Shown here: one piece after another, positions 5,573 to 64,000 of the stretch
Position numbering within the stretch: position 1 is the first letter of the stretch
How the letters are laid out: each line of letters opens with the position of its first letter
Assembly: GCA_946699065.1 (NCBI GenBank)
Contig: CAMPDV010001270.1
Span: 54,713-118,712, forward strand
Origin: Loxodes magnus
Lineage: Eukaryota > Ciliophora > Karyorelictea > Loxodida > Loxodidae
Reading direction: 5' to 3'
DNA length: 64,000 nucleotides
The notes under the pieces: model-generated
Told to the model about the DNA's origin: nothing
What the model saw: the letters and a program-made list of their open reading frames with translations, nothing else
Database searches by the model: none
Program-made: the position numbers and the translations under genes

Positions 5573-5993
5573 TAAAATGGATGTCGGCCGCGTCAAATAA
5601 GATAGTAGGTAATCTGGTTCAGAGTATACTGCATTACGAGTAATCTCGCACTTTATGCCACCACGGGGAAGGGTGAATAAGCTCCGTTGAGACATACCTA
5701 ACTTACCCCGAGGGTTTTCTCTAGCAGTATGAAAGTTTGACTGACGGGCCTTCTTATTACCGACTTAATAACTTCTTTTATTTGGACCTTATTCAAGAAG
5801 GCTGAAGCATTTGACTCAAGATTTAAGAATATATTTTAATAAGAAGATTCCCCATTTGGAGAAGCTGACATGACTCATCGGACCTCTAGAATTTTAACAA
5901 GAAACATGAGAACATTTTTCTTAATATTAAATATTAATATTGAAAGAGCTGCGCGCCAATGAGGTGCTACGCGTTCTATAATTATTTTTATTT
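5573..5993 (+). mobile_element. 410-bp structured short element, copy 1
   Basis: Starts at TGGATGTCGGCCGCG and ends in the shared 3' hairpin (5942-5982), then TATAATT and TTTATTTATTTA. Inside are two adjacent perfect or near-perfect hairpins: the GCAGT/ACTGC type around GTAT, and TGCGAG/CTCGCA around TAAT. Copies lie at 43561, 46838 and 63579 (+) and at 21960 (-). The LINE 3' UTR is a diverged homologue. No conserved reading frame was seen, so it looks like a SINE or a truncated LINE 3' end. Confidence 0.85.
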
Positions 5994-6639
5994 ATTTATC
6001 TGTTATCTTTTATATTTTAATCTTGAGTTCTTTTACTTCTTTTACTTCATTTAGGAGTATTTCATTTTATTTTTAAACTTAAAGAGTATCTTAAATATTC
6101 ATAATATTATTTACTGTTTTTAACTGGTTAGAGAATGAATTATCAAAAGTATCTTACTATGTAGAGGATATTTTTGATACGAGTGTTGAGACTGAGGTAC
6201 CAATCTAATTTTTTTTATCTTTAAATATATTTTTGAATCTTTAGAATTCTTGTTAGTTAATTTCCAGTTCTTAAGGAATTTCGAAGTAATTTTAACGGAA
6301 TTCGAAGGATCTTGTTAACTGGAGATTTACTACAACTATTTAGTAAAGCTCTTAACAATTTTATAATATTCTTAACGGATTTTAGTTGAAATGAATCAGG
6401 ATAAATTTTTAGAAAGTAGTCGAGCATCTGCCTATGCTCATTTAATTAGATAGCAGCTTCTTTATTTTTAGGTAAAGAAGAGTCGTCAAGATTTTAATCC
6501 CGCGATATTTAGAATTCATTAATTTTTTTATGTTTCCAATTTATTTAAAGAGTTATTTCCTATAGCTTCCTCTATGAATGGAATACACTCGCTTCCATAA
6601 CCAAATATTTGATTTATAAAGAATTTTATTATTATAGAT
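5994..6639. other. Intergenic, AT-rich
   Basis: Nothing recognisable on either strand. It may include the C-terminal tail of the RT relic that follows, which is read on the minus strand. Confidence 0.5.
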
Positions 6640-7680
6640 GCATTATATAGAGTGATTCTTTTAAAAATTATTAATTTGCTTAAAATTCATGCTTGGGTTT
6701 TCTGGCATTGTTAGATTCTTGGCTCCAGATGTTTTTAATATGAAATATTTTCTTATATCCAATGACCTAAATACTTAAATTCCTTCACTTTCTCTATTAC
6801 TATACCTCTTATTGTGATTATCTCTTAATTTTGTCATGCATTACCATTTCATACCATTCATTTTGTTTTGTCCACAATATATAAATTATATAGTTATGTT
6901 AATTATTATAGTATATCAGTCATATCATCTAGTTAATCTGGATGAATAATGGTACAATATCATCAGCATATGCTAGAACACCTACATATCTTACTTCTGT
7001 TCCCTATTCAGTTTCAGTCTGTGTTGTAATAACAACTTCTTTTTCCTTTAGTTAATTTAATAACTAATTTAATATTATATTATATTGAATAATCTTGGAG
7101 GAGCAGACACATCCTTATTTTACTCCGTTTAAAGTTTCAAATTCTTCAGAGATAAGATCTCTTATTCTTAATCTTACTCTCTCCTCTTTATATATGTCTG
7201 CTAGGAATTTATTTCTCCTTGCGTTACTACGATCTTATTCAGTATTTTTCATAAATAGCATCTAATTACTGAATCAAATGCTTTTTTAATATAAATAAAA
7301 AAGACGATAGTCTCTTGTCTGTTATAATATAGCCATTCAAGTAATGTTCTTAGATTGAATTCTTGATGAGAGCATGATTTACATGACAAAATCGAAATGC
7401 AAAACAACATAACATCTTTACAAGTAAAGATTGAATAATTTCAATAGTATGAGATCTATGATTTTAAAAAAGGTTAATCATAAGTGATATGTAACGATAG
7501 CAATAGGATCATCTGAGTTTCTTATTTTGTGCATAATTTTAATGTAGGATTCTTATCTGTTTTGTATTTTCCGCTATTGAATTATACTTTAAATAAATCT
7601 TCAGTATCTTTTAATAAACTAATCCTACGGATCGAATAAATCGTAATTAAATTAAGACTGGCCATGAAACTTTTCGTAAG
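6640..7680 (-). pseudogene. Second, distinct LINE reverse transcriptase relic
   Basis: Minus-strand blocks in order are 'SDDPIAI' (NYRPI-like region, about 7510), 'VFFIYIKKAFDSVI' (about 7250-7310), 'LNGVKQGCVCSS' (about 7100), 'GVLAYADDIVPL' (about 6955-6990) and 'KVKEFKYLGHWI' (about 6760). These are the standard RT motifs, with a canonical YADD box. The sequence differs clearly from the FADE-type LINE of this window (KAFDSV versus KMFDSI), so it belongs to another lineage. Frame changes between blocks indicate decay. No endonuclease part was recognised. Confidence 0.75.
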
Positions 7681-8119: not shown

Positions 8120-8209
8120 AACATAACTAGTGTGATCACTCATGGTCTTACTGGTACCTGTCCTGACGTCCCATAGTCTCACCGTCTAATCAGAACTTCC
8201 CGATACTAT
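8120..8209 (-). repeat. Stray WD40 repeat unit
   Basis: About 90 bp almost identical to one 123-bp WD40 unit of the gene at 54897-57457. It includes the stretch encoding 'DVRTGTSKTMSGH'-like residues. Differences from the gene are a handful of substitutions. It lies alone between unrelated sequences, about 47 kb from the array. Confidence 0.85.
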
Positions 8210-11751: not shown

Positions 11752-12340
11752 TAGAGTAAATAATATTTATTGGATTTCAAATTATCAAAATTTGTATGTA
11801 AATTTAAAATTTGGTATGCTAAATATATTTTTAAGTACTTATAATATTACCTATAGATAGTTAAGTTTTATTTTATCAGAAAATTTATTTTTGATTAATT
11901 TATTTTTTAATTTAAATTTTTTAAAATTAAAAAACCAAATAACATTTTAAGTCTGTTTAAATTATTTTTTAATCAAATTTGCACTAAAAAGGAAATTTTT
12001 TGTGAAGGACTTGCAAAGCTAATTTTTAATTATATTTTTTATTTAAAAATTTTCATATTTTTTGCGTTTAAAAATTCCTTTTAGTGTTTCATTTAATTTT
12101 TAGTGTGCTATTTTAAATTAAATATTGCTATAAGCTTATAATTTTAAGTCATGCTTTTTCTATTAATTTTTGAAAAGCATTATTTCAATATTTGAAAACA
12201 ATTATTTTAGTAAATTCATCTTATTATTTTATTTATATGCAAATATTATTTTTTATGATTAAAAAATCTCTTTTTTCTGATATAAGTAATTTTTTTGTCT
12301 AATCTTTCGTAATATAAAAGCATGATTTAAAAATAATTTT
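11752..12340. other. AT-rich 3' flank
   Basis: Contains the 3' UTR of the WD40 gene and low-complexity A/T runs. Nothing else is recognisable. Confidence 0.5.
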
Positions 12341-20206: not shown

Positions 20207-20279
20207 CGCCCAACGTGGGGCTCGAACCCACGACCACCAGATTAAGAGTCTGACGCTCTACCGACTGAGCTAGCCGGGC
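20207..20279 (-). tRNA. tRNA-Lys (anticodon CTT)
   Basis: A full cloverleaf on the minus strand: acceptor GCCCGGC with GTTGGGC (two G-U), D stem GCTC/GAGC, anticodon stem TCAGA/TCTGG with loop CTCTTAA (anticodon CTT), five-base variable loop, and T stem GTGGG/CCCAC with loop TTCGAGC. The discriminator is G. TTTTT follows directly, a normal RNA polymerase III terminator. No intron. Confidence 0.96.
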
Positions 20280-20519: not shown

Positions 20520-21165
20520 CTTTTTTACTTTTTAGGAGTATCTTTCTCGAAATGAAGCTTTAATAGAAGAACGACTGTAGTGTTAATCCAATCTAGTTTA
20601 TTCGAAGAAGTTCCAATAGAGACTGGAGTAACAAAGACTAATATCAAGAAAACTAAAAAATGATTGAATGAAAATATAAAAAATGAAGTTATAAAAATAG
20701 AAAAAATAGAAAACTACATTTTTTAGGAGCAAAAATAATAAATAGGTGCTGATATTACAATTTTTCAAAACATCTAATAATACGCTGCTTTGGATTCAAA
20801 AGGCTAAAAAGACAAGAGAAGGAAGAACTTGAAGATAAATTATTACATTTTCAATAAATAGCAATAGAATCTACAAAAAAGATAGTAGAACAGAAGAATC
20901 CTTTGTTAGATGGATAGGAAAGTAAAAGTCATCCATATAATTGAAAATGGTAAAGAAATATAATCTCTATAAAACTGAACACTGTAGCTTTCGAAAATCC
21001 ATAGAAAGTAAACAATTCTTAATTGCTTGATGATAATAATATTAATAATAAAGATTGAAAAAGAACAAAAAATCATGTAAACAAATAATAAAAGCTGGCA
21101 TAAAGAGAATGTAATTAAAATTGTTATAAAATATTAAAAAAAATTAAATAACAATTAAATAATAA
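20520..21165 (+). CDS. Possible coding region, unrecognised
   Basis: In one frame from about 20520 the translation is well patterned ('SSLFEEVPIETGVTKTNIK', then 'KKWLNENIKNEVIKIEKIE'). After about 20800 another frame looks better ('EKEELEDKLLHFQQIAIES'). TTTACTTTTTAG just before 20535 could be a 3' splice site. A split or broken gene would explain this. There is no domain match, so confidence is low. Confidence 0.27.
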
Positions 21166-21176
21166 TAAATAAATTG

Positions 21177-21500
21177 TATTATAGAGCGTGTAGCACTCTC
21201 AATGGTGCACAGCTCTTTAAATCAATTTTAGTTGCTTTAATAAAAATTTCTCATTAGAAGTTTCTTCCATTGCTTCACACCCTTACAAATTCCACCTTCT
21301 AATAGGGCCTGGTCAGAGTGATGCCCCAAGAAACCTAATAGTCTGGATTCTTTCATCAACCATCACTCAATGCCTCCAGTTATTTCCTGTTTGACTACTG
21401 CCAAGATTCTTGCACAGTTCGTTGCTCCTGAAGTACTTCCTGGTACTTGAGTTTAAATCAGTCTCAGTTGAAGGATTATTCCTCCCTATTTAAAAATATA
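21177..21500 (-). mobile_element. Short coding element type E2, copy 1
   Basis: On the minus strand it starts near 21500 after TAAATAGGGAGG. It encodes 'REEQSFNWDWFKLKYQE' and 'QESWQQSNRKQLEAL', and ends in the shared hairpin (21177-21218) followed by TATAATACAATTTATTTATT. The copy at 46497-46830 keeps 'EQS.NW' with the Trp as TGA in both, and 'QESWQ', so the body is protein-coding. The hairpin here has GTG/CAC where most copies have GCG/CGC, a paired change. The protein is not recognised. Confidence 0.72.
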
Positions 21501-21532
21501 TATATAATAATAAATAATAAATAAATAAAAGT

Positions 21533-21960
21533 GATTATAGAGCGCGTGGTACCTCATTGGCGCGCAGCTCTTTCAATATTAATATTTAATATTAAGAAAA
21601 ATGTTCTCAAAAGCTTCGATTTCATTCTATTCGTCCAAAGAATCACTTCATCTTCTCCAAATGGGGAATCTTCTTATTAAAAATTATTCTAAAATCTTGA
21701 GTCAAATGCTTCAGTCTTCTTGAATAAGGTCCAAATAAGAGATAGTTATTAAGTCGGTAATTAGAAGGCCCGTCAGTCAAGCTTTCATACTGCAAGAGAG
21801 AACCCTCGGAGTAAGTTAGGTATGTCTCAACGGAGCTTATCCACCCTTCCCCATGGTGGTATCTAGTGCGAGATTACTCGCAATGCAGTATACACTGCAC
21901 CAGATTGCCTACTAGTTTGGCTGACGCGGCCGACATAATTTTATAAATATATAATAATAG
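21533..21960 (-). mobile_element. 410-bp structured short element, copy 2 (inverted)
   Basis: Full-length reverse-orientation copy. Its 3' hairpin (21533-21573) and tail TATAATCACTTTTATTTATTTA run straight into the start of the E2 element at 21500. The two therefore lie head to tail on the minus strand, with the tail of one acting as the insertion site of the next. Confidence 0.85.
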
Positions 21961-29890: not shown

Positions 29891-30224
29891 CAATTATTTT
29901 AGCATGGGATTTTATTTATATATTACATCATGTTAACTTTATAGTCAGAAATAGTTTTGAAAAAAAGGTAGGTAAAATCAAAGTACCTACTTTCAATCCT
30001 TATAGATATAGAATGGATGTTTTACACTATTAATAGGATATTGTTGTTTAATCATTCACATAGATAATAGCTACTTCATATCCTTATAAATTACTTCAAG
30101 TCGTTTTGACATAATTAGATAATATATTTGACTTAAACGGTACATTTTCAAAAAGTGTATATATATAATTAATTAAAGTGGACTACTATCATTAGGTTAA
30201 CCACTATTTAATTGTTCAATACCG

Positions 30225-30512
30225 ATAAATAGATATCTCTTGAAAATGGAGTCATAGCAGGTTGCATCTCTTGAACTATCAAGGCAGTCTTCACTTGTCA
30301 CCCAATAACTATTTCAGGTTATTTTAGCAGAAGATCATTCCGTTCCTAGGTTCCGAGGATAAGCCAAAGTAGTGGAAAACCTAGTTGATTACGGATACTT
30401 AATTTCCCAACCTCTGGTGATACTATCCTTTTCTTCACTCTTCGATTATGGTTCTAGTTCCTTTGGAGGTTCCACCCACTAAACCAAACTAAAGTTTGGG
30501 AACCTCCATCTT
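30225..30512 (-). mobile_element. Short coding element C (relative of E4)
   Basis: A GC-richer island. Its minus strand encodes 'SPEVGKLSIRNQLGFPLLW', then 'GTQERNDLLL'. It aligns with the E4 bodies at 41622-42145 and 51722-52055 ('SSEVGEVKYPQSTLCLPLLW', 'ETQDS'). The shared core also appears as DNA (CGGATACTTAATTTCCCAAC versus GGGTACTTAACTTCCCCAAC). No 3' hairpin was found here. Confidence 0.6.
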
Positions 30513-32354
30513 AAAAGGAAATTATGTATAATACAGTAATGGAGTATTATAAGGATGTTACCATGGTAATGAAATTGGTATTAACTTCTATGATAATGTT
30601 ATCATATGTTAGTAAACTTAATTCTTATCTTACCAATAAATTAAATTATATTATATATAAATACTATATAGTTTTGTTTCACTTCTTTATAGCAAGAAGA
30701 TATATATAAGTATATATAATACCCTATAATACAGAGATTAAGAGCCTTTATGTTTATAAGGGAAACTAAAATTAATCTCATTAAATGTTATGTATAAAAG
30801 AAGCGCTTTGTTATTATAATTTTAGTTACTTAAAGAATAGAATCAATACAATTATAGTACTTAGCTAGATTATAATATATAAGTCTTTAATTTACAATGC
30901 TTATAACAGTTCTAGTAACTTGCTAGCTTACACTTCTATCTTTATTATTAGGATTGAAATTAATTTTCAAATAGTCCTTAAAAGTGTATATTAGACTATT
31001 GGTAGTAAATTGAATATTATTAAGAATCTTACCAGGTTTGCTTATAAAATTTAAATATATAGGCCCAATAGCAGGTATAGGAAAGTTAGGTATAATAGCT
31101 AGTAAATAGTTTAAATTAATGTAAGGGTCAAAATACCAAAAACTATATAGTTACTAAAAAAGAGCCTATAAGTATAAGGGACACTAGAAACTGGGGATGG
31201 AACTAATATCTAAGAGCAGCATTAAGAGATATATGAAATTTAGTAAAGAATAGCATTAGATTAGTTAGTTAAGTATTCAATCTAGACCAAAATTATCCAT
31301 GGATATCTATTTTAATTTTTACATGTTTGCAAGCAGAATACCTTTCAAAAGTATCTAAGTGATATAAGGGAATTTACACCAATATGTTTATAAAGGATAA
31401 TTTTTTATGTCTAGGAGTAAGTTGAGAAAAATAGGATAAATCAAAGAGTAAGATAAGAAGGTAGAAAGTTTTATAAAATTAAGGTAAAAAGCATATATAA
31501 TATGATAGTTATATTCATAAATATGGTGCCAAGTATATCCTAATTAACAAGTCAATAAACAAGTTAAATTGAAATTGAATAATTAAATTTCCTAATATTT
31601 TAATTGAATTAGAATGTAAAGCTAGTTAACTAACCTACATAAACTGATAAAGAAATCAACTAATAAAATTAAAAAAGCAAAGCGTAAAATATACAAAGGA
31701 ATTAGGATCTAACAAGGTAAATGTATAAATAGCTCGCTTAAGTTAAAATTAATAAATAAAATAAATTCTCAATAGATTAATAATTTCAGTCTAAATATAC
31801 CTACATTATAAGTTTCTAATATGATGCATATTTAATATCTTCTGAATAGGCTTTGAAAAGAAAAATTATTATATATATCATACTCTATTTATATATCATT
31901 TAGTATTCTTAGTATACACTTAGAGAATAATCTTAATCAACTTTATGTGGAGAGATTCAAATTGATTTTCTGCTTTTTTGTATGAATTTATTCAAAAAGC
32001 CTCGAGATTAAGCTCAAGCATTTACTACGCATTCATCAATTTTAGTTTTCACAAACTTGCTTAAATTTAAATCCTTCATAGAATATTTAAAGGGTAAGCT
32101 TCATTTTATTATGGCTTTAACTATTCCCTTCACTTAAATAACTGACAATCTTCTTTTCTCAATCAGAGATATAAAAGCATAGAAAAGAGGGAAATAAAAA
32201 CGACAAATGAAGCATAAAAATCAGGTTATCTGATTCTTATATCAAGCGAGATATAAGAGGTGAGATTTAAGTAGATGGAGATTAAATAATTTTCATAAGT
32301 TAAATAGAATTAAATGGTATAAAGGCTAAATTTAAAGGAAGCTTAATTAGACAT
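30513..32354. other. Intergenic, AT-rich
   Basis: Low-complexity sequence. No supported feature until the thioredoxin-like relic. Confidence 0.5.
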
Positions 32355-33232: not shown

Positions 33233-34423
33233 CTAATAATTCTAACTAAATTATGACTAAATAATTAAAACATTAAAGCTTTACTATAAAATCAAGTTTA
33301 GTTTACATTTTAAAATTATTTGCTTTCAATAGTTACTGCTATAAAAAGAAGGAGAGAGTTGCTAAATTATTTATAATGCCAAATTAATTGAAAAAGACCA
33401 AATAAGAATATTAACATGCCAATTTTTACTAAATTCACCAAAGAAAAGAAGACAAACACTGATATCTTTTATCTATTTAAACTGAATACCTTCATAAAGT
33501 AAAAAAACATTAGGATGAAAACAGAGTAAGAAAATTCACTTTAAATGATAATTTGAGAAACCGGGCCAAAGAATAAACCTTCGGAAATAATAAAAATCAA
33601 ATATCTAAATCTATTTTAACGTTTAATTAGAATTATCATAGAACTGGAAAAAGTTTTGGAATATCTTTCGTATGACATCAAATTCTCATACTATTAGTGC
33701 AAATAGTAGCATTTTTCTTTATTTCTATGGAGAAGTTCAAAATTAATTAGAAAATAATTAGAAAATAAATTTATTAATAAAATAGCAACAAAGAGAAGGA
33801 GATTTAATAAAGGAAAGAATAGATAAAGTCAATAAGCAGAGTAAAGAAAAAAGAATCATTTTTGCAATAAAGGCATCGTAACTCCAAAAAGTTCAACTAA
33901 GCGATATCAATAAAAATTCAAAAATTTAAAAAAACTAAAAAAATTAAAAAGAAATGCTGCATATGTAGTAGCATATAGCACTCTAGAGAAAATTCAGACT
34001 AATAAATAATACGTAAGAATAATTGAAAAATCCTACTACATTTACCCTACATATAATGAGAAATTTTGAAGGAAAAAGCTAAATCTATAGAAAAAACATA
34101 ATCTATCAAGTGAAATGATTAAAATTAAGAAATAAAGATACCTTTTTACTACTCAGGAGAGAGAATTTTTGAATAAGTAATTTATTTTCCTTAAAACTTT
34201 AATTTTATTTGAATTGATCATTATTTTACTGCATTGATGCTATTTTTAATTTAATTATTTAGATCCTTAATTTTTAAGTGTAAAAAAGATTTTCTAATTT
34301 TTCCATTTCGAGGAAAATAATAAATATTTTCTATCTTTTTTAATTAAGTATAACTTCTTATCTTAAGTTATACAATTCATAATTTCTTTAATTAGCTAGC
34401 ATTTATTTCATTAAATAAATAAA
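33233..34423. other. A-rich region with a possible zinc-knuckle scrap
   Basis: A plus-strand 'KKCCICSSIQHSREN' near 33950-34000, preceded by a Lys/Gln-rich helical stretch, could be a decayed ORF1 knuckle (C-x2-C-x4-H, last Cys missing). Support is weak. The rest shows nothing. Confidence 0.35.
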
Positions 34424-34600
34424 ATTAAAGAGCGCATAGTACCTCACTGGTGCGGGATTCTTTTAAAGATTTTTAAAGTTAAAAAATCCTTTGCTGAAGT
34501 CTTCCAAAGTGCTAGCATTCCCTTGTGAGCTTTGTCTTCTATAGTGCCGCGATTGGAATACTCCTCCATATTTATTTATATAAAATAAATTTATAAATTT
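34424..34600 (-). mobile_element. Short coding element type E2, copy 2 (internally shortened)
   Basis: On the minus strand it shares GAATGCTAGCACTTTGGAAG and flanks with the E2 copy at 46497-46830. It ends in a hairpin (34426-34462) and a TTTAATTTTATTTATTTAATG tail. Only about 135 bp of body remains. Confidence 0.6.
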
Positions 34601-36020: not shown

Positions 36021-36827
36021 TTCAGTGTAATAATTATCTATCTAAGTATTAAATAAAGTATATAAAACAGTCAATTTATACTAGTCTCTTATTTTACTAT
36101 TTTCTTAATTATATATCTAGTTTTCTATTCATAAATGAAATCTTACATTTAGAAATCCCATTAATATAACCTCATCATTTTTATCACTTTTTGCATTCAT
36201 AAATTTTGCGGAAAATATAAATTATTTTTTTCACTGTAATAATCATTTATTATAGAATTATTCTACTTAGGTTTAATTATTTTGATAAAAATCCATTTTA
36301 TAGTAATTTATCTGAATTAGCTTTTTCTATAGCTTATTGTTTTAATATATACAATTTAGATTTTTCATTTCGGTTATAATTTTTCTTTATTCTGTATAAA
36401 TATTTTTATAGCAACTCTTATTTTAAATATAGAGTATTATAATGTTTCTAGAAATAGTATAAATATAAATATTTATTCAACTATTTTAAGTAAAAATTAA
36501 AATCTTATTTCTTAGATTGCTTAATTAAATTCAAGATATAATTATAAAAGTGTTCAAATCTATTTAAATTTTATCAGTCTTCCTTTAAAATTTAATAATA
36601 TATTAAAATATAATTTTTATAAATTTTTTATTGTATTTTTTATTTTAAGCTCCATTCAAATAATGCTTTTATTTCACTTTTTTAAAATTGACGTTTTTAA
36701 TATAATTTTCTTATCAATTTCTTTAATATTTATTTTTTAATTAACTTTTGTTATTTTATTTTGTTATAATAATTTTAAATATTTTTGTCGCTTTTAAGAT
36801 TTAGAAATTGTATAAATAAATAAATTG
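36021..36827. other. Intergenic, AT-rich
   Basis: Nothing supported. Confidence 0.5.
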
Positions 36828-37200
36828 GATTATAGAGCGCGTAGCACTCTCGTTGGTGCGCAACTCTTTAAATTAATTTTAATTAATGTCGAAAAATAAA
36901 ATTTTATTGATTTCTCTATCCTTGTTTTCTCTTCTTGCAGTACGTCCTTGTAATTTTTCTTTCCAAAGCATATGCTGCAATATGCAATTACGGGTACATT
37001 TCCCCGACTTATGATGAAGAAAGTTACCTCCTGGCATTCAGAGTTCTCCAGCTTGTCACATCTTCCTTCTCTTGTTATTTGTTTCTCTTCCTCCGATTTA
37101 TCCTCCGCCCGCGCTCATTGTTTAGTTGCCTTACTAGACTTCCAAACAGCATCCAAAGGAAAGAGCTTTTCATCCTATTTTAAAATATAATATAATAAAA
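36828..37200 (-). mobile_element. Short coding element type E3, copy 1
   Basis: The minus strand holds one open frame of about 110 residues: 'EKQITREGRCDKLENSECQ', 'FFIISRGNVPVIAYCSICFG', 'KDVLQEEKTRIEKSIKFYF'. It ends in the shared hairpin (36829-36870) and CAATTTATTTATTTATA. The copy at 41238-41620 differs mainly by conservative changes (Ser-Ile to Asn-Leu, Lys to Arg), so the frame was selected. Cys pairs suggest a small zinc-binding fold, which is inferred. Reading continues through the hairpin as 'LKSCAPTRVLRAL'. Confidence 0.75.
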
Positions 37201-39139: not shown

Positions 39140-39235
39140 ATCATAATTAAAAATCAATTATATCTTAACAAAAAATAATTATACAATATTCTTCCTATAT
39201 TTTTTATGTTTTTTTATTTATTTTAAAAAATTATA

Positions 39236-39465
39236 TTATAGAGTGCGTAGCACCACAGTGGCGCGCATCTCTTTTTAGAATGTTACTAGAATTAAAATAA
39301 ATAAATTTATTACTATAGTACTCATATTTTTTATTATTATAGTACTATATAAAATATGGATATAGTTCGTGGTCAGGAGAATTAGTAGGTAATTTGATAT
39401 AGTGTATACTGATTGTTACTAATCTCGCACCAGTTACCACCTATAGTGCCACTTTAAAATTAATA
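39236..39465. mobile_element. Composite of a 3' hairpin and a 410-bp element fragment
   Basis: 39236-39276 is the shared hairpin in minus orientation (AGAG/CTCT base, GCG/CGC). 39346-39465 is the first about 110 bp of a 410-bp element in plus orientation, diverged ('GTAGGTAATTTGATATAGTG'), with its 3' part missing. The hairpin lies just downstream of the kelch gene. Confidence 0.6.
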
Positions 39466-41225: not shown

Positions 41226-41237
41226 TATAAATAAATT

Positions 41238-41620
41238 GGATTATAGAGCGCGTAGCACTCTCCTTGGTGCGCAGCTCTTTAAATTTATTTTATTTAATGT
41301 TGAAAAAATAAAATTTTATTGGTTTCTCTATCCTTGTTTTCTCTTCTTGCAGTACGTCTCTTTAATTTTTCCTTCCAAAGCATAGGTTGCAATATGCAAT
41401 TACGGGTACATTTCCCCGACTTATGATGAAGAAAGTTTCCTCCTGGCATTCAGAGTTTTCCAGGTTGTCACATCTTCCTTCTCTTGCTATTTGTTTCTCT
41501 TCCTCCGATTTATCCTCCGTCCGCGCTCATTTTTTAGTCGCCTTGCTGGGCCTCCAAACAGCATCCGAAGTAAAGAGCTTTTCACCCTATTTAAATTATT
41601 TTTATATAATAATAAATAAA
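41238..41620 (-). mobile_element. Short coding element type E3, copy 2
   Basis: A full copy of the 36.8-kb element. The minus frame reads 'EKQIAREGRCDNLENSECQ', 'FFIISRGNVPVIAYCNLCFG', 'RDVLQEEKTRIEKPIKFYF'. It ends in the hairpin (41239-41280) and CAATTTATTTATACATAATG. Its 5' end lies in the TTTATTTATTATTATATAAA tail of the E4 element to the right, so the two form a head-to-tail pair on the minus strand. Confidence 0.75.
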
Positions 41621-41621
41621 T

Positions 41622-42145
41622 ATGATTATAGAGCGCGTAGCACTCTCGTTGTTGCGCAGCTCTTTTAAAAAAAAATGTTTCATACTGACAAGAATGTTTG
41701 TTACTGATAAAATTATCAGATACTGGTAGACCTTGTTCAATACTGGTATAATTATTCAGTACTGATAAAAATGTTCAATACTGATATAATTTTAGAATAC
41801 TCGTAATCTTTAATACTTGCTGGAGGTCCAAGGACATGGCAGGATTGTGTCTCATTGCATCACCAAAGCAGAGGACGACATGTGTCAATTATGGGTACTT
41901 AAATTCCCCAACCTCTGATGAAGCTCGCAATATTATTTCTTTTTCGTTCCAGTATTAAAAATAAACGAAACCAAGTCAAGCCAACGTCGAAGGTCTAAGA
42001 ATCTTATGTCTCGAGGCCAAACCAAAGCAGAGGAAGACATAAAGTCGATTATGGGTACTTAACTTCCCCAACCTCTGATGAAGATGACCTTGTTGTTCAC
42101 CTTTGAACAACTATGGCGGTTTTAAAGAATATATATAATAAATTA
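41622..42145 (-). mobile_element. Short element type E4, copy 1 (with internal duplication)
   Basis: The minus strand carries 'SSEVGEVKYPQSTLCLPLLW' and 'ETQDS', then a second, partly decayed copy of the same block ('SSEVGEFKYPQ', 'PLLWWCNETQ'). A stretch of ATACTGATA-type units follows (about 41680-41810) before the hairpin (41623-41664) and (TTTA)n tail. Element C at 30225 shares the coding block. Confidence 0.68.
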
Positions 42146-43560: not shown

Positions 43561-43990
43561 ATAATATAAAATGGATGTTGGCCGCGTCAGAAAAACAAGT
43601 AGGTAATCTGGTGCAGTGTATATTGCATTGCGAGTAATCTTGCATTAGATGCCATCACGGGGGAGGGTGGATAGCTCCGTTGAGACATACCTAACTTACC
43701 CCGAGGGTTCTCTCTGACAGTATGAAAGTTTGACTAACGGGCCTTCTAATTACCGAATTAATAACTAATTCTTATTTGGACCTTATTCAAGAAGATTGAA
43801 GCATTTGACTCAAGATTTAAGAATAATTTTTAATAAGAAGATTCCCCATTTGGAGAAGCTGACATGACTCATCGGACCTCTAGAATTTAACAAGAAACAT
43901 GAGAACATTTTTCTTAATATTAAATATTAATATTGAAAGAGCTGCGCATCAATGAGGTACTACACACTCTATAATCATTTTTATTAATTA
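43561..43990 (+). mobile_element. 410-bp structured short element, copy 3
   Basis: Full length, from TGGATGTTGGCCGCG to the hairpin (43936-43975, TGCGCATCAATGAGGTACTAC) and TATAATCATTTTTATT. Both internal hairpins are partly altered (GTATATTGC, AATCTTGCA). Confidence 0.85.
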
Positions 43991-44347
43991 ATTTATCTTA
44001 AAATTTGCATTAATAGAACAAACTCTGTTAATTAAATTTCTTGTATTAAATATTTTCTATTTTTCTTTAATATAATAATTTTTTTATTTAGAAGACATAT
44101 TTAAGACAATGGTTTAGAGGAAAGGTATATCTTCATCAGAAATAGGGGAAAAGAAATGCTCATAATCAACTGTTGTTTTCCTTTGCTTTTGTTTTGAATA
44201 GTGATATAGCCTTTCATTGACCTTACGAAATCAAGAAGTGTTTAATTTTATCAGTATTTAACTCTTAAAGAACTGAGCATTATTTAAGGATTAAGTGCTC
44301 TATAATTTCAAATTATTTTTAGTCTTTAATTAAAATTATTTATAGGG

Positions 44348-46215: not shown

Positions 46216-46496
46216 AACTGAACAGTCAGTCATAGCAAAATAAATTGTAATATAAATATTTCTTTTATCAATATTATATAAATTATTTCTCATATATTTC
46301 TTTACCTAATTATTAAAAGCCTTTTTACTTTAAAATTTATGTAACTTTTTTAGTATTCAAACTTAATAAATCTAAAATTTGCTTAAAAATAAGATAAAAT
46401 ATAAAAAATCTTAAATTTTATAAATGATTTTAGTTATAAAAATTATGAATTACAGTTAAGAAGAAATAAAACAGAAAATTGCTATTATTATATTTA

Positions 46497-46830
46497 AATA
46501 GGAAGGAACAATCTTCCAACTGAAATTTACTTAAATTATGGTACCAGGAAAAAATCCATAGATGACGAAGAACCGAACAAGAATCTTGGTAGGAACTAAG
46601 AGAAGACAAGATTGAAGAGGTATCAAGTAACGTTAATAATGAAGATGTAAGATACTAAGGTCTCTTAGGGAGAATTCCAATAACAGCCCTATAGAAGATA
46701 CTACTCACAAAGAAATGCTAGCACAGTGGAAGACTTCAGAAAATAATTTTTTTAATTTTAAAAATCTTTATTAAAGAGTTGCGTGCCATTGATATGCTAC
46801 GTGCTCTCTAATCTTATTTATTTATTTATT
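46497..46830 (+). mobile_element. Short coding element type E2, copy 3
   Basis: Plus frame: 'RKEQSSNWNLLKLWYQEKI', 'TEQESWQELREDKIEEVSS'. It aligns with the 21.2-kb copy, including TGA-encoded Trp in 'NW'. It ends in the hairpin (46771-46814, TTGCGTGCCATTGATATGC) and TAATCTTATTTATTTATTTATT. The next 410-bp element begins in that tail, another head-to-tail pair. Confidence 0.72.
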
Positions 46831-46837
46831 ATCATTA

Positions 46838-47265
46838 TATATAAAATGGATGTCGACTGCGTCAGATAAATTAGTAGGTAATCTGGTGCAGTGTATACTG
46901 CATTGCGAGTAATCTCGCACTAGATGCCACAACGGGAAAGGGTGGATAAGCTCAGTTGAGACATAACTAACTTACCCCGAAGTTCTCTCTAGCAATATGA
47001 TAGTTTAACTGACAGACCTTCTAATTACCAATTTAATAATTAATTTTTATTTGGACCTTATTCAAGAAGACTGAAGTATTTGACTCAAGATTTAAGAATA
47101 ATTTTTAATAAGAATATTCCCAATTTGAAGAAGATGACATGACTCATTGGACACTCTAGAATTTTAACAAGAAACATGGGAATATTTTTCTTAATATTAA
47201 ATATTAATATTGAAAGAGCTGCGTTCCAATAAGGTGCTACATTCTCTATAATCATATTTATCCAT
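46838..47265 (+). mobile_element. 410-bp structured short element, copy 4
   Basis: Full length, starting TGGATGTCGACTGCG. The hairpins GTGCAGTGTATACTGCAT and TGCGAGTAATCTCGCA are perfect here. The 3' hairpin (47212-47252) is weakened (GCGTTCC, ACATTCTC). Confidence 0.85.
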
Positions 47266-50405: not shown

Positions 50406-51721
50406 TGTTTCAGCTCTTTAACCTCCAAAAATATACAAATTTCCTTTTTAATTGAATGATAAACCGAAAGTTTCAATAGACTATTAAAGATAAGCAATAT
50501 CCATCCTGTGTTTCCAAGTATTTAAATCGAAGACTTCATTATTTATTTATTTTTCACTTCCAATTATATAAATAAATCTCTTATTATCGAAAGAGTTCTA
50601 GAATACTTTCTAGAGTACTTAGCTTATCATTCTATGTTATCATTCTATGTTTACTATTTGCTAAATAAGTAAAATCTGTTTGCGAGTTGCAATTTTTCTT
50701 CTCCGCCTACTATTGAAAGTTTATAGTCATAAAGTTACTCTACATAACTCTAAGCATCTACCTTTTTCTTATATTAAAGTAAAGTTACTGCCTTTTAAGC
50801 TCTGAAGTTATAGGTAACTAAACTATAAGACTACTTTTAGAATATTGAGTAGCTTTGTTTCAGGTAAACTAGATTAGGTAAAATTCTGTATTAATAAACC
50901 ATCAAAGGGATCTTGTAAGACAATAATGCAACTTTGAAGTTAGCATTTACTCTTAGTAGTTTTCTTAATTATAATATAGGGATTAAAAACTATTATTTAG
51001 ATGCTTTTTCACTCATTTTATTTAAATTAAAGCTGACTTAAAATAAATCCACTAGACTTTAAATCTAGAATGCTATAATCAAGAGTGTGTTAAATGTATT
51101 AAGCTTTGATATATGTAATTACTTAATACCATAAATAAAACTGCCTTAGTTAATAGATTTTTAGCTCTAAATTAGTATTTAAATGTACCTGGTTAAATGC
51201 TAAAAGGTATTAATAAAGAAATAGGAATGCTTAAGTAATTTTATTAATATAAGTTAGTATAATAGAAGATATACATAGCTAAATAAGACTTAAGATAAAG
51301 AATGTATTAAAGTATTAATAGATATTAATCATATTAAATTAAGAAATAATCAAAGTATAATTCTAATAAACTAAACTAATTATAAGTATAATTAAGCTTC
51401 TTCATTCAAACCTCATTAATATTTTTAACATATTAGTCATTATTCTCTAAAGATCTTTATTTAAGCGATGCTTTTAGGGATAAATTTACTAAGAAAAATT
51501 TCTTTAGTAGAAAGAAGTGTGAGTAGATACTTTAAATTAAGCTATTTGCTTAAAATTTAGAATTTCTATAATTAGAAAGTTCTAATATATCAAAAAAATA
51601 AAAAATAGCTTGTAATTTGTGTGTTATTGAAAAAACTTAAAAGATTATATAGCAATATGTATATACTTGTCATACTTCTTAAATAATTTTAGAAATAAAA
51701 TAAATAAATAATAAATAAATT
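50406..51721. other. Intergenic, AT-rich
   Basis: Nothing supported. The left part could hold further exons of the fragment at 50118. Confidence 0.45.
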
Positions 51722-52055
51722 TGATTATAGAGCGCGTAGCGCTCTCGTTGGTGCGCAGCTCTTTAAAAAAATGTTTCATACTGACAAGAATGTTTGTTAC
51801 TGATAAAATTATCAGATACTGATAAACCTTGTTCAATACTGGTATAATTATTCAGTACTGATAAAAATGTTCAATACTGATATAATTTTAGAATACTCGT
51901 AATCTTTTCTACTTACTGGAGGTCCAAGGACATGGCAGGAATGTGTCTCATTGCATCACCAAAGCAGAGGACGACATGTGTCAACCTCTGATGAAAATGA
52001 CCTTGTTGTTCACCTTCGAACAACTATGGCGGTTTTAAAAAATAATATATAAATA
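51722..52055 (-). mobile_element. Short element type E4, copy 2
   Basis: Nearly identical to the right part of the 41.6-kb copy but lacking one of its two duplicated coding blocks. It includes the ATACTGATA-type region and the hairpin (51723-51764) with CAAATTTATTTATTATTTATT. Its 5' end lies in the tail of the next hairpin at 52064. Confidence 0.72.
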
Positions 52056-52063: not shown

Positions 52064-52110
52064 TGATTATAGTGGAAACACCTTCAATGGTTCTGCCACT
52101 GTTTGTTCTT
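52064..52110 (-). mobile_element. Variant 3' hairpin with a different lower stem
   Basis: On the minus strand: AGTGG-CAGAACC-ATTGAA-GGTGTTT-CCACT, then TATAATCAATTTTTATT. The layout, upper loop and TATAATC match the other hairpins, but the lower stem is AGTGG/CCACT instead of AGAGC/GCTCT. The body to the right (to about 52.7 kb) is T-rich and not recognised. Confidence 0.6.
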
Positions 52111-57457: not shown

Positions 57458-57829
57458 TTATAAAGATTAAAAAAAATATTAGTATATAGAAACTAATTAT
57501 ATTGAAATAAAAATTGATAAAATATTTTTATTATTTAAAAAAAAGATTTAACTTAAATAAAATTTAAACTTTAAAAATAAAATTAAGATAGAATTTAAAC
57601 ACTTAAATTTTATTAAAAATACTTTAGTATTTCGAAATTAAAAAAATAAAAGTAAAATATAAATAATTAAAAGTCCAATTATAAGAAATAAAATAAGAAT
57701 CTCTGAAAATATTTAATTTAAGAAAAAAAATAAAGAAATATGATATCATAAAAAAATTAAACATGATATACATAATGATAATATTTTAATGACTTTAGTA
57801 CAAATCGATAAACAAAGATAAATAAAAAT
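57458..57829. other. AT-rich upstream region of the RING gene
   Basis: No repeat or gene. It must include the promoter of the minus-strand gene. No element can be named. Confidence 0.5.
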
Positions 57830-60800
57830 TATTATAGAGTGTGAAGCACTTCTTTTATGCGCAGCACTTTTATAATTAGTCTTTCATATTAAGAAAAATG
57901 TTTACGTGCTTCTTGTTATAATTTTATTATCATAATGAGATACGTCACCTTCAATAAATCGGAAATCTTTTTTTATTAAAGATGAATCTCGAATTTTTAA
58001 TTAAATATACTTGTCTTTTTGAAAAGAATAGTTATTAAGTCGTCAGTAGACCCTTCATGCAAATATTAATACTGCTAACGAGAATTCTTAAGAAAGTTAG
58101 GCTTATCTCTTCCTAACTTATCCACCCTTTCCTTTGGTGGCATTTATTATGAGAGATTACTTGCAATGTAGTATACACTACACCAAATGTTCAATGGCTT
58201 TTCCTGACAACTGCCGACAACCATTTTTTTTTTAAATATAAATATGATTATGGAAATTTAACAAATTATAACTATCAACAAAAAACATATTATAAATCAA
58301 TTGATCTATGAAAATAATATTTGTATATATATATTCGATGAGAAATGATTAAAAAATATATATATAAATTAAACAAAAAATGTTTTATAAAATCACATAA
58401 AAATTTTTAAAACTTATATATTATTAGAATAAGAATGAAAATACTATATTTATAACCACGTCATCTTTTAAAAAAATAATATTCTTATTAAACTTAACAA
58501 TAACTTCCTAATGAACTAGAAAAAAAACATGAAATGCTTCTTAAATATTCAAAACTTTAATAATATAGAATAAGCTTAAAATATAAAAAATAACCAAATG
58601 TAACGAAAAGTTGAAGAAATTACAACTGAAAAAAAAGAATTAAAATGAACAGATAGTTAAAGTAATGTTTAACCTAAATTAAGAATTTATAAATACTAAT
58701 AACTGACTAATTAAATCAAAATCGAACTATTAACTAAAAAAAGAGCATTAAAACTTTACACTTGTTAGAAAAATATAATGCTTTTTGAAGTACTTCATAA
58801 GATCAAACTAACAACACTTAAAGCATGTAAATAAATCAGATAGAAATTAATATAAGACCACAAAAAAAAAGAAATTAAGCAAAAATTATAAACTCAAATG
58901 GCTATAATAGAATAAAAATTGAAACAATGATGATTGAAAAAGAAATTATCAGAAATCTTAAAAGCAAAAAGAAATAAATTAAATAAAAAAATTAAATCTG
59001 TTTTAGAGGATAAAGGCATATAAATCGACGACATAAGAAAGTTATAAATGAAAAGAAGAAAAAAACTAGAAGTTTAAAAGTAATCTATAAAGAACCTAGT
59101 TTAGAAATAAAAAACCGATTAAGATCTAAAAATTAAAAAATTAAAAAAATTAAAAAAAACAAAAAAAAACTATAAATTTTGAAGAAAGAGTTTATGAATG
59201 AATGATTTAACCAATCAATTAATTTACGTGGTTTCATCATTGATATTTTGACCACAAATTAAGAGAAAATCAAAAGTAAGAGTATTCTTGGAAATTATCT
59301 TATCAGACCAGAATCTGCTTAGTTTTCTTCCATTTATTCTAAATTTTCTTCCAATAGATTCATTATATCCTGATCTGAATAATTAGATTCAATCTCCATC
59401 ATTAGGTCTTTTTAAAACAGTATAATTCTATTTCTATCTATTACTTTTCCAACTCTTTCATTTGTCTTTAGATAGTTAAGCTATCTGTAGTCTTTTCTGA
59501 GGGCATCGCAAGTTCCTTTTCACATTTTCTTAGAATTGCTATAAAGCTGCTAAATCATATTTTTATTTTTGTCCTCTTGATAAATTATTATAAATTCAAA
59601 TATGCTCGATGGATCCTGCTCTGTAGTTTTTACTCATTTTTTTCTAATAAGGAAGAATTTTTTAAATATAACCCCATTTTCTTTTCTCTTATATATCTCT
59701 CAGAAAATTTTTAATGTGAGAATCTATTTCTTTTTTTTGATTAATTGTAGAGTTCGTATCAGATTTTCGAATTTGTAATTTCCTCATACTATTTCTTCAA
59801 GCCTGAGTTTAAGAAGGCTTATTTTTATTAGTTATTACTGATAATTACGTTCGTGATATTTTCTATTAACTATTCTCTTTCTTCTTTGTATTATCTGCAA
59901 TCTTCTATTATATGGATCTCATCTACCTTTCTATAATTGTAGAATTAAAATGCTTAACTTTCTATTAGATTTTTTTCTTTCTTTTCATTGTTTATTCTGC
60001 TCCATTGCATTTGGCCCGTAGTCTAAATAAGTATCATATTTCCTGTTTTCTGTATTTGTTGAATCTTAGGAAGTTTGGTATTCATTGTATGAATTGTTCC
60101 ATTAATTCACTTCTAATTTTTTGCAGGTGATTATATTCTACATTCGTGTGATGGAATTTACATCATTGCGGAACTTTATCGCTTTTTATCATTAATTTTT
60201 CATCTATTCCTTTTCATTTTTCTTGTATTATTATTTCGTCATTGAGCTGTAGTGCCTCCATTACCTTACTTGAGTTATGTTTCAAATATATAGTTATTCC
60301 TCTTTGTTAATTGACATATTCATCCATCCAATGTTGATTCTTAGTTTAGGAGCAATTTTCTTCTGAACATTATCATACGCTATCACATGTAATTTTGTAG
60401 TTTAAGGAAAATCGGTTAATTCTCTAGGATTTCGTTTTATGCTCAAAAAGATCCATCTACTACAGCTCTTAATGATATAAGCTGCATGATTTCCAATTAA
60501 TTAATTAATTAAAATATAATAGTTTCAATATTTAAGAATATTGAGACATAGTTGCAATAGATATTGCTTAGACTATAAATATTACAAATATGTTGAAAGA
60601 TAAAAGTTTGCAAATGTCAATCAAGCTTCTTCTTGTTCTTTCACTATCATATATTTTTATTTATTTTCTTGATTAAATTTTTCTTTTTTTCCCTCTAGAA
60701 ACTCTTCTAACAACTCATCTTGTAGTTTAAACATTTTAAGACACTTTTTGAGTAATTTGGAATTAAAATTTTTGATTAATTTGTCTATTTTAGGAATTTG

Positions 60801-63578
60801 ATTTTTTGAAAGATGTTTGCTTATATAGTTTTAGTCATAAAGAATTAGTTTCTTTTTGTCTTTTTCTTTAAGAGCTTTACGACTTTCGAATTCCTCAATA
60901 ATATCTGCATAGTATTAGCATTCAAAAATATGATCAGTTTCATCAAAGTCTTAGCCACATAAGCAAATAATGCTATATCTAACGATAATGTGATGATTAC
61001 TGAGTTCTTATTGAAAATTATAAGAAAAATTTCTTAGTTTATAGATGGAAATAGTCTCTCTAATATAGTGTTTATTATATTTAGTGTAAGTAATTTCAGG
61101 AAATACACTTTAATTATTTTCTATTTAGTCTATAATTCTTTTTGCTGTTGGCATAAGTGTATTTATAGAGAGACATTCCATTAAGAATTTATGTTTTATT
61201 TTTTATTCCGTGAGTTTATAAAAATCCATATTATTCTAAACATGTGACATGTCAAAATTATACAAATTGATACATTTCTTTATATGTTTCTAGTATGGTA
61301 AATTAAATTTAGTGTCTTTTTCTAATAAAAAGTAGTGTCTGATTAAGGATTTTCTTTGCTGTAATATATTAATTTTTAATAAAAGTGCATTAACTTTTGA
61401 GTTACCTTATGTGTAAAAAGAAGCCAGTTTAGATCAATAAAGCATGAATCATTGAATGTAAATTCTTAAGATCTAAACGCCTATCTTGAAATAAGCCTTT
61501 ACAATTTTGCTATCTTGCCTTTTATTCCTCTAATTCCAGAAATAGTAGCTCACGGAGTAATATCACTTCCATATTAAACTTTAGGCAAAATAAAAGTTCT
61601 ATAAAGAATTTTTAAGCTGAGAGGGGATACTAAAACATATTTAGAAAGTATTACAGTAGTTTTTTAACTAGCTATTCTGTATTTGGTAGCTACTGCTGTA
61701 CAATGTAATTTGTAATTTTATTTTATTTTATTCCTAACTAATATCCTAAATGGTTAACTTCATCTTTTTAAGCAATTGGAATCCCATTGAGCTTTATAGT
61801 AATAGAAGGTTAGCTTTCTTTTCATTTATTTTTTCAAGAATTCTATTACTTCACATTTATCTACATTAATTGTAAGTTTTACTCAATCAAAACTGTAGAT
61901 GTAGCTTGTAATAATTTTTAAGCATTTTTCTAGAAAGAGGATATTTGGATTAATTCGTCAGCAAAGGCTCGTACTACGAAAGTTTTAGATAATATTTGAA
62001 ATCCTAATTTCTTCTGATTATCTTCTAAATATCTTATAACAATATCATAGTATAAAATTGCAAGTACAGGTGCATAACTACTTCCTTATAGTAATCCATT
62101 GCTATATTTAATTGTTCTTTTAAGATATCCATCAATTATAAACTTAGCATCAACATTATCATAAAAAGATTCTAGTGCTTATTAGGTCAAAGGTAACCTA
62201 AGTCTTCTAAGATTGTCAAAAAGTAATTTCCTAGATATGCTATCAAACATTTTTTCTACATCTATTAAAGTAGCAATTAATTACTTTTTATGAGATCATC
62301 TGCGATGCAAGTCTATAATTTACTAAATAGTTCAAATTTGCTAAGTAGAGGAGTGTTTACGAATAAATCCAAATTAGGCTGGATGTAAAATGTTTCTTTC
62401 ATAAATATAATTTTAAAGTCGTTATGCTAGCGCTTTATCATAAATTTTAAGTAGACAGTTCAATAAAGCGATAGGTTGTCAATTGCATCAATTATTTTTG
62501 TTTCCCTTTTTGAAAATCGGAAGAATGCCTATTTTTTTCATTGCATTAGGTATTTTAAATGTTCTAAGTATGTTATTAATGAAACTTGTAATAATTTAAT
62601 GCAAATCTTAATCTCCATATTTAATAAGCTCAGCTTTAGACCCTCATTACCTGCAGCTTTATTATTTGCAAGCTAAGATATAATTTTTTTAATTTAAAAT
62701 CATGTAAAAAGAGGCATATTTTATAAATAACTTAATTCCTAATTTAAGATAAAAGATTTATTTCTAAATATTCCATCTATTTTTCTATTTGAGAAGTAAA
62801 AATCTATCTTACTTATTTTCGAATGTTCATCAAAAACGTTGGTTTCTCGATTTTCAATAAACTGCTGTTTATATTTAAAGTTAAAATTCATCTAATTAAG
62901 AATTTTTGGGTTTATTAGATTCTTAACTTGTTTAAGCATTATTTAAGCATTTTGTTAAGATCTTTATTTTTTCCTTAGCTTTTTATTTTTTTTCATTTCC
63001 AAAGATTGTGAAGATAATGCTTATAAGATTAAATTTTAAGCTAGTAAAGTTTGATAACTTCTTAATTATGTCATCCATACAAAGCTAATGCGTTCTAATA
63101 TGCAATATTATCCTCTTTTACTTGAACAAATAACATACTTTAGTAACTTGACAATTGATAATAGTTTTTCTTTAATTTTAAGATCTAAGCGCAATCTCAG
63201 CATCATAACTAATAAGATTGCAGATGAATTGATACTAGGTTTCAACATCTTTTTAATCAAGTTACTAGAATTTATAAAATTATCCCAAAAATAGCTTAAT
63301 AATAGTTTCTCGTGTTCAGATCCTATAATTTAGAAATTTTAAAGAGTAATCGTTATTGTTAATCTTATTCACTTCTTTTTAAATTATAATTAAATGTAAT
63401 ACTTAGTAGAAAATTATCAATATACAAATTCGAATCTTGGATAATTTTATAGTCAACGAAATCATCAGAATTTAAATGTTAAGTTGCCAAGAAGTAGTAA
63501 TTACAATAGCATTAATTATTCGCTCTATGAATAAATGTGTTGGACTCATTATCATTTAAAATTATTAATTGATATTTC
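57830..63578 (-). mobile_element. LINE-type retrotransposon, copy 2 (complete 3' end)
   Basis: Same content as the left copy, but with the 3' end preserved. The 3' UTR (58225-57830 on the minus strand) is co-linear with the 410-bp elements (TGGTTGTCGGC at its start, GTAGTGTATACTAC inside). It ends in a hairpin (57830-57872) followed by TATAATAATTTTTATTTATC. The RT motifs lie about 57983 bases to the right of those listed for copy 1. The frame break after 'NEGLK' is the same. The 5' end is truncated within the endonuclease domain at about 63575. Confidence 0.82.
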
Positions 63579-64000
63579 ATAAAATGGATGTCGGCCGCGT
63601 CAAATAAGATAGTAGGTAATCTGGTTCAGAGTATACTGCATTACGAGTAATCTCGCACTTTATGCCACCACGGGGAAGGGTGGATAAGCTCCGTTGAGAC
63701 ATACCTAACTTACCCCGAGGGTTTTCTCTAGCAGTATGAAAGTTTGACTGACGGGCCTTCTTATTACCAACTTAATAACTTCTTTTATTTGACCTTATTC
63801 AAGAAGGCTGAAGCATTTAACTCAAGATTTAAGAATAGATTTTAATAAGAAGATTCCCCATTTGGAGAAGCTGACATGACTCATCGGGACCTCTAGAATT
63901 TTAACAAGAAACATGAGAACATTTTTCTTAATATTAAATATTAATATTGAAAGAGCTGCGCGCCAATGAGGTGCTACGCGTTCTATAATTATTTTTATTT
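57984..64000. repeat. Large direct repeat, right copy
   Basis: Counterpart of 1-5993, cut by the window end. About 150 bp of element sequence to the left (57830-57983) has no counterpart in view because the left copy is cut. Confidence 0.93.
63579..64000 (+). mobile_element. 410-bp structured short element, copy 5
   Basis: Counterpart of 5573-5993, with the hairpin at 63949-63989 and the start of the TTTATTT tail. It abuts the truncated 5' end of the LINE in opposite orientation, exactly as in the left copy. Confidence 0.85.

What the first reader, a model, noticed from the sequence alone, without database searches (positions are those of the whole stretch)
5942..63989. One 3' hairpin shared by many unrelated short elements
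About 16 copies of a roughly 40-nt hairpin (AGAGC..GCTCT lower stem, GCAC/GTGC-like upper stem), nearly always followed by TATAATC and TTTA repeats. They close at least four different bodies (410-bp, E2, E3, E4), an ORF1 gene and the LINE. This looks like a common 3' signal for one reverse transcriptase, as known for stringent LINE-SINE pairs. Here it is attached to several bodies, some of them coding.
Basis: partly seen in the sequence, partly recalled or inferred. Interest (0 to 1): 0.8.

Follow-up and report, generated by a model that had tools for sequence, protein, structure and literature searches.

The report
One LINE hairpin on many repeats
In what is very probably the genome of the ciliate Loxodes magnus, the small RNA hairpin at the end of a LINE retrotransposon also ends several unrelated short non-coding repeats present in thousands of copies, which probably hitch-hike on the LINE's copying enzyme; this is a known kind of LINE-SINE partnership, but with heads that lack the usual SINE promoter.

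Summary
The hairpin is real: 14 copies in the window, 2 look-alikes with other stem letters, and 10,731 genome sites by two patterns, controls 0. The hairpin follows the stop codon of a 5.5-kb EN-RT LINE in 19 of the 20 RT loci cut out. It also closes four unrelated bodies: E1 2214, E2 1698, E3 4771, E4 219 sites, which match the LINE only in its last 60-80 bp. One target motif precedes these copies, and a filled/empty-site set shows an E3 insertion. Stems covary across families. Not supported: coding bodies, and an ORF1 gene or a LINE closed by the hairpin inside the window. The bodies lack Pol III boxes, so they are SINE-like, not textbook SINEs. E2, E3 (twice) and E6 share a central domain, E6 with another hairpin. 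Verdict: a new variant of the known stringent LINE-SINE kind.

The parts
5577..6000 (+). E1 (410-bp) element, hairpin at 5943-5983
21516..21937 (-). E1 element, hairpin at 21573-21533; an E4 starts in its tail
43571..43996 (+). E1 element, hairpin at 43936-43976
46846..47263 (+). E1 element, hairpin at 47213-47253; sits in the tail of an E4
57816..58224 (-). diverged E1 element (72.5% to the E1 consensus), hairpin at 57870-57830
63584..64000 (+). E1 element, duplicate of 5577-6000; hairpin at 63950-63990
39234..39441 (-). rearranged E1: hairpin 39274-39234(-) preceded by an inverted E1 5' piece (39332-39441, + strand)
36812..37183 (-). E2 element, hairpin at 36869-36828
41227..41594 (-). E2 element, hairpin at 41280-41239; starts in the tail of an E3
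41611..42138 (-). E3 element with two copies of the structured central domain; hairpin at 41665-41624
51704..52040 (-). E3 element, internally deleted; hairpin at 51764-51723; starts in the tail after the 52102-52065 hairpin
21156..21493 (-). E4 element, hairpin at 21218-21177
46494..46834 (+). E4 element, hairpin at 46773-46813
34412..34564 (-). 5'-truncated E4, hairpin at 34463-34423
52065..52102 (-). hairpin of the same layout with stem AGTGG/CCACT, followed by ATAATC and an AT tail; its body not identified
30165..30520 (-). E6 element: own head, central domain, hairpin AGTGG/CCACT (30205-30177), TTAATTAATTA tail
6534..7380 (-). decayed LINE RT relic, no hairpin end
   Evidence: tblastx
1652..2500 (-). 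decayed LINE relic (RT and downstream), no hairpin end
   Evidence: tblastx

Best explanation
The hairpin is the 3' recognition signal of a stringent-type EN-RT LINE of Loxodes. SHOWN by sequence: it follows the LINE's stop codon by about 10 nt and is followed by a (TTTA)n tail; the same end sits on at least four unrelated bodies (E1-E4) with fixed starts and no coding constraint; these bodies share an insertion target motif; one E3 insertion is visible against unfilled paralogues. INFERRED: the LINE protein binds the stem-loop of any RNA that carries it, nicks TTATTA/TATA-like targets and primes reverse transcription from the tail, so E1-E4 are non-autonomous SINE-like passengers that acquired the LINE end; their RNAs are probably not Pol III transcripts. 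LINE lineages with other stem letters (AGTGC/GCACT, CGTGG/CCACG) and the E6 repeat (AGTGG/CCACT) suggest the same layout serves different LINE partners.
For: Hairpin at the LINE 3' end in 19 of 20 RT loci (the 20 are the best of 150 scored out of 3403 candidates; the 19 have 17 distinct 3' flanks), 10 nt after ...EEIDMY-TGA. Genome sites with up to 3 mismatches, controls 0: E2/E3-type hairpin 6972, E1-type 3759, LINE-type 3530, which overlaps the E1-type set by construction; bodies 2214, 1698, 4771, 219. LINE and E1-E4 consensuses match only at LINE 5412/5426-5491, apart from chance-level AT matches. Of 96 model hits in the window and 63 of the 83 loci then held, 91 cluster as E1 36, E3 34, E2 10, LINE 6, E4 5. 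Target TTATTA-n(0-2)-TATA within 45 nt upstream: E1 16 of 29, E3 19 of 30, E2 4 of 7, E4 2 of 4, LINE 1 of 3, against 1.0% of random and 3.5% of AT-matched windows. L077 carries an E3 in an E1 tail where its paralogues L076 and L078 lack it. Stem covariation over 17 hairpins: 6 of 11 pairs changed on both sides (7 of 500 shuffles reach it), covariation score reached by 0 of 500. A second LINE lineage (L084 type, 87 sites) has its own hairpin after its ORF; 7 of 7 sampled copies have LINE sequence upstream.
Against: No target-site duplication signal (E1 9.15 same-copy vs 8.84 swapped; E3 8.21 vs 8.18). One of 20 RT loci (L005) lacks the hairpin. The target motif was chosen after looking at the flanks, some copies are paralogues (L076-L078), and for the LINE itself it rests on 1 of 3 copies. 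Covariation within the 13 window rows alone was no better than shuffles; the 17 rows were picked by me, and 66 of 500 shuffles reach its count of further pair types. In the coding test the LINE's shared-variant columns (7/3/8, p=0.31) were not significant although its substitutions were. No RNA or enzyme data. Only one LINE family was read in full.
Confidence: 0.85

Rival explanations
1. All bodies are truncations or internal-deletion derivatives of one long LINE.
For: They share the LINE's last 60-80 bp.
Against: No E1-E4 similarity to the 5.5-kb LINE outside that end beyond chance-level AT matches; a fixed 5' start is found in 26 of 33 E1 and 29 of 32 E3 copies instead of variable truncation points.
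Confidence: 0.05
2. The bodies are small protein-coding mobile genes or retro-copied mRNAs that share a 3' UTR.
For: Under code 27 long frames are open, and E1 starts with ATG and has a TGA next to the hairpin, though in another frame.
Against: Nearly any sequence is open under this code. Substitutions by codon position are flat in E1-E4 (p 0.064-0.74) but biased in the LINE RT region (52/30/65, p=0.0017; 19 of 20 loci used); deletions are mostly not multiples of 3 (E1 7 of 55, E3 6 of 56, E2 0 of 17, E4 0 of 2 are); E1a/E1b consensuses differ by 1-, 4-, 1-nt indels and 16/18/17 substitutions by position.
Confidence: 0.05
3. Helitron-like DNA transposons, whose 3' ends also carry a hairpin and which make no target-site duplication (recalled).
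For: 3' hairpin, no target-site duplication found, AT-rich target.
Against: The same 3' end belongs to an EN-RT coding LINE; the hairpin is followed by TATAATC and TTTA repeats of variable number, not by CTRR; the Loxodes genome paper calls its helitron annotations likely spurious (PMC11441545 section 11).
Confidence: 0.03
4. A general host mRNA 3'-end or termination signal that LINE and repeats merely use.
For: The LINE 3' end is short, like host 3'-UTRs (mean 53, median 41 bp; PMC11441545 section 9).
Against: Of 96 model hits, 91 lie on five element families; of the 5 singletons one is an unassigned body (E5), one a rearranged E1, one an E2 cut by the locus edge, one cut off and one unresolved. 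The loci were mostly fetched by hairpin pattern, but the window was not, and its 14 all fall on E1-E4.
Confidence: 0.05

Closest known systems
Stringent-type LINE/SINE pairs (eel UnaL2 and its SINE, zebrafish ZfL2-1 and ZfL2-2; L2 clade)
   Same: 3' stem-loop followed by a short-repeat tail; ZfL2 elements with a deleted or swapped stem-loop did not retrotranspose (PMC4176376 section 13); SINEs share the partner's tail (PMC3747384 section 7 and passages).
   Different: Ciliate host; heads without Pol III boxes; at least four heads on one LINE end. Binding of this hairpin by the Loxodes RT is not tested. The LINE's clade was not determined.
ZenoSINE and Fritillar of heliconiine butterflies (partner Zenon LINE)
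   Same: LINE 3' tail fused to a head of unknown origin; more than one SINE with one LINE's tail (PMC6685494 passages).
   Different: Insects; the word hairpin does not occur in that main text.
SINEs with a conserved central domain (CORE and V superfamilies, recalled and seen in listings; HaSE1/HaSE2)
   Same: A central domain shared between families with different 3' ends (PMC3272025 abstract).
   Different: Here the heads are not tRNA or 5S derived by Rfam, and the domain looks like an RNA double helix with some compensatory changes.
[quoted passage not shown]
   Same: 5-6 kb, RVT_1 plus Exo_endo_phos_2, about 3,000 copies per family (PMC11441545 section 11); our LINE is 5.5 kb with both domains.
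   Different: That main text holds neither 'SINE' nor 'hairpin'; its supplements were not read. Which family our LINE is was not tested.

Membership tests
Stringent-type LINE (3' stem-loop) | EN and RT domains | tested here: met
   RVT_1 3.3e-37, Exo_endo_phos_2 3.3e-12 in L081
Stringent-type LINE (3' stem-loop) | conserved 3' stem-loop at the element's end with compensatory changes | tested here: met
   19 of 20 RT loci; covariation score 0 of 500 shuffles over 17 chosen rows; no signal in the 13 window rows alone
Stringent-type LINE (3' stem-loop) | RT requires the stem-loop | not testable with these tools
   needs a TPRT or cell assay
SINE | short, dispersed, high copy, non-coding | tested here: met
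   bodies of about 270-460 nt before the hairpin
SINE | 3' end shared with a LINE | tested here: met
SINE | head from tRNA, 5S or 7SL RNA | tested here: not met
   only a tRNA gene at 20207-20279 passes Rfam gathering in the window; only two hits below gathering score at lax threshold for E1 and E2/E3; E4 covered only
SINE | internal Pol III A and B boxes | tested here: not met
   best A+B fit of E1-E5 and LINE 5' end no better than shuffles (45-100 of 100 shuffles as good); window tRNA control 0 mismatches; a T-run of 5 or more in each of E1-E4
LINE-driven insertion (TPRT) | target-site duplication | tested here: inconclusive
   no signal above swapped flanks for E1 and E3; AT-rich flanks limit the test; the E2 row of that call is void and E4 had 3 copies
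Helitron | 3' CTRR end after a hairpin | tested here: not met
   the hairpin is followed by TATAATC and TTTA repeats on an EN-RT element
Helitron | rolling-circle helicase in an autonomous partner | not tested
   no helicase search was made

The most novel reading that the evidence does not exclude
Loxodes holds a superfamily of SINE-like elements without Pol III boxes, probably Pol II-made, built from exchangeable modules: private heads, a shared double-helix central domain (E2, twice in E3, E6, and a single diverged copy E5), and a 3' hairpin that fits one LINE lineage's reverse transcriptase. Families change LINE partner by swapping hairpins (AGAGC/GCUCU in E1-E4, AGUGG/CCACU in E6). They insert preferentially into each other's tails (8 of 69 full-length copies start within 90 nt of another element's hairpin, 4 of 58 outside the window), so an older copy may supply the target, or even the transcription, of the next.
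Probability: 0.3. Interest if true: 0.7.

Novelty: new variant of a known kind. Interest (0 to 1): 0.5.

Why it matters
It extends stem-loop LINE-SINE parasitism to a ciliate in which, by the genome paper's abstract, extensive DNA elimination was not found, and to bodies lacking the usual Pol III promoter. The related LINE lineages with different, covarying stems, one of which carried only LINE sequence in the sample (7 of 7, plus L084 itself), form a natural set for testing how a reverse transcriptase reads its RNA hairpin and how passengers change host LINE.

Tried and rejected
Truncation of one LINE: rejected for the family read in full. Coding bodies: rejected for E1-E4; the smaller E1 subfamily used rests on 4 copies, three of them (L076-L078) paralogues of one insertion. 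Window-only covariation: no better than shuffles, significant only after adding other families. Rfam at lax threshold: SCARNA7 at 12 bits and snoMe28S-Am2634 at 24.7 bits, both under their gathering scores of 65 and 50. Fold z-scores of bodies: E1 -2.58, E2 -0.24, E3 -1.48, E4 -1.84, not used as proof. Target-site duplications: none found. The RNAalifold run used T letters and was repeated with U. The first structure that I placed on the central domain was misaligned (56.3% paired, no signal); corrected (4 rows, 97.5% paired, 3 of 10 pairs changed on both sides, 10 of 500 shuffles reach the covariation score). With two E6 rows added the stem weakens: 94.4% paired, 2 of 9 pairs changed on both sides (109 of 500 shuffles reach that), score reached by 12 of 500, and one outer pair fails in both E6 rows. 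E5: its pattern finds only the one known copy, so it is tentative. Three of four E6 3' ends fetched (L090-L092) are duplicates of the window's E6 with the same flanks, so E6 rests on few independent copies (window, L048, L088, L093), and its hairpin is imperfect in the last three. L087 was fetched as a LINE 3' end but shows no recognisable one. In one search the E2 start was misplaced, so its row is void; the E2 row was void and was redone. Three hits below 16 bits and 11 hits at or below 20.1 bits were not counted.
Full report
WHERE WE ARE. The window is contig C1270:54713-118712 of a 705,730,643-base, 7,843-contig genome. The LINE RT reads sensibly only if TGA is Trp and TAA/TAG are Gln, which is the karyorelict code, table 27. 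The Loxodes magnus MAC assembly is 706 Mbp and uses that code (PMC11441545; outline with abstract, sections 8, 9, 11, 16, 25 and passages seen). I therefore take the genome to be L. magnus; the match is by size and code, not by name.

THE HAIRPIN. A covariance model of 13 window rows finds 14 copies in the window at 49.8-66.4 bits; the next match has 20.1 bits. Genome-wide, two patterns match 6972 and 3759 sites with up to 3 mismatches and 0 control matches. They differ by one base in loop length, and in the window and all loci held no site matched both (43 and 56 sites), so I add them to 10,731. A third, LINE-type pattern matches 3530 sites; it differs from the E1-type pattern by two letters, so those sets overlap.

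THE LINE. Of the 20 RT loci cut out (best of 150 scored out of 3403 candidates), 19 carry the hairpin about 1.3 kb after the RT domain. In these 19 the order is ...TGA, 10 nt, hairpin, TATAATC (one has TATAGTC), TTTA repeats; they have 17 distinct 3' flanks. The exception, L005, has the ORF end but other sequence after it. Three copies read in full are 5.5 kb and 96.4-97.1% alike, with a CCHC motif in ORF1 and a second one after the RT (my reading), Exo_endo_phos_2 and RVT_1. Nearest named solved relatives by sequence are L1 ORF2p and R2.

THE BODIES. Of 96 model hits in the window and 63 of the 83 loci then held (L021-L083; L001-L020 were searched), 91 cluster as E1 36, E3 34, E2 10, LINE 6, E4 5, and 5 are singletons. 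These loci were mostly fetched by exact E1-type or E2/E3-type hairpins, so the proportions are biased. Interior body patterns, which do not depend on the hairpin, match E1 2214, E2 1698, E3 4771, E4 219 sites (controls 0). Consensuses of E1-E4 match the LINE only at its positions 5412/5426-5491, apart from short chance-level AT matches. E1-E4 show no codon-position bias, while substitutions in the LINE RT region do (52/30/65, p=0.0017), although the LINE's shared-variant columns (7/3/8) do not. There are no Pol III boxes above chance, with the window's tRNA as positive control.

INSERTION. No target-site duplication is detectable. The motif TTATTA-n(0-2)-TATA, chosen after seeing the flanks, lies within 45 nt before 16 of 29 E1, 19 of 30 E3, 4 of 7 E2, 2 of 4 E4 and 1 of 3 LINE copies, against 3.5% of AT-matched windows. 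L077 holds an E3 in the tail of an E1 that stands without it in the paralogous L076 and L078. Eight of 69 full-length copies start within 90 nt of another element's hairpin, 4 of 58 outside the window; by my arithmetic about 0.14% would be expected from 10,731 sites. Seen the other way, 7 of 96 hairpins (3 of them in the window) are followed within 110 nt by an element start, against 1.5% of random windows in the same loci. One window hairpin (39274-39234) is preceded by an inverted E1 5' piece, as in 5' inversions of LINE inserts (recalled).

STRUCTURE. Across 17 hairpins from LINE and SINE-like families, picked by me, 87.3% of cells pair, 6 of 11 pairs change on both sides (7 of 500 shuffles reach that), and no shuffle reaches the covariation score. 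Other LINE lineages end in AGTGC/GCACT (L085) and CGTGG/CCACG (L084; 87 sites), right after their ORFs (the ORF ends are my reading). The L084-type end has LINE sequence upstream in L084 and in 6 of 6 further copies. E2, E3 (twice) and E5 share a domain whose two helices pair in 97.5% of cells; with two E6 rows it is 94.4%, 12 of 500 shuffles reach the covariation score, and one outer pair fails in both E6 rows, so the helix is likely but modestly supported. E6 (54 sites) has an AGTGG/CCACT-like hairpin and another tail.

MECHANISM AND STANDING. The best account is stem-loop recognition by the LINE protein with several passengers, as shown for ZfL2 LINEs (PMC4176376 abstract and section 13) and surveyed for 58 SINEs (PMC3747384 section 7 and passages). 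ZenoSINE and Fritillar already show a LINE tail on a head of unknown origin (PMC6685494 passages). I found nothing in print on SINEs of ciliates in these searches: 'Loxodes'+'SINE' (0 papers); 'Loxodes magnus'+'retrotransposon' (1, the genome paper); 'ciliate'+'short interspersed'+'non-LTR retrotransposon' (16 listed, none on ciliate SINEs by title); 'ciliate'+'SINEs'+'LINEs'+'micronuclear'+'retrotransposon' (1 review); 'karyorelict'+'stem-loop' (3, unrelated by title). Only open-licence papers are held, the papers listed were not opened, and the Loxodes supplements were not read.

Noticed in passing
window 1-5993 and 57984-64000: 97.1% identical direct repeat 58 kb apart. It extends at least 493 bp left of the window (94%), and the contig ends exactly at the window's end, so a tandem duplication or an assembly loop is possible.
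   Followed up: partly
window 22787-23124(-) and 34905-35260(-): A repeated short CCHC-like ORF (..CYLCKSRFH..), 71% alike over 314 bp, without the hairpin; no strong similarity to the LINE ORF1 in the tblastx.
   Followed up: partly
window 12327-12659, 13859-14044, 32904-33236, 52705-52945: Another dispersed repeat family, 75-94% alike, not tied to the hairpin.
   Followed up: no
window 55381-55894, 8121-8212, 10687-11307: Tandem repeats of 123-126 bp and a related piece; the translations look like WD40 repeats (my reading).
   Followed up: no
L005: LINE copy whose ORF end is present but whose hairpin is replaced by other sequence.
   Followed up: no
G000:C5131 and the start of G000:C20: RT matches repeat every ~2.5 kb in one orientation, and in C20 so do LINE-type hairpins: probably a tandem array of LINE 3' parts.
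   Followed up: no
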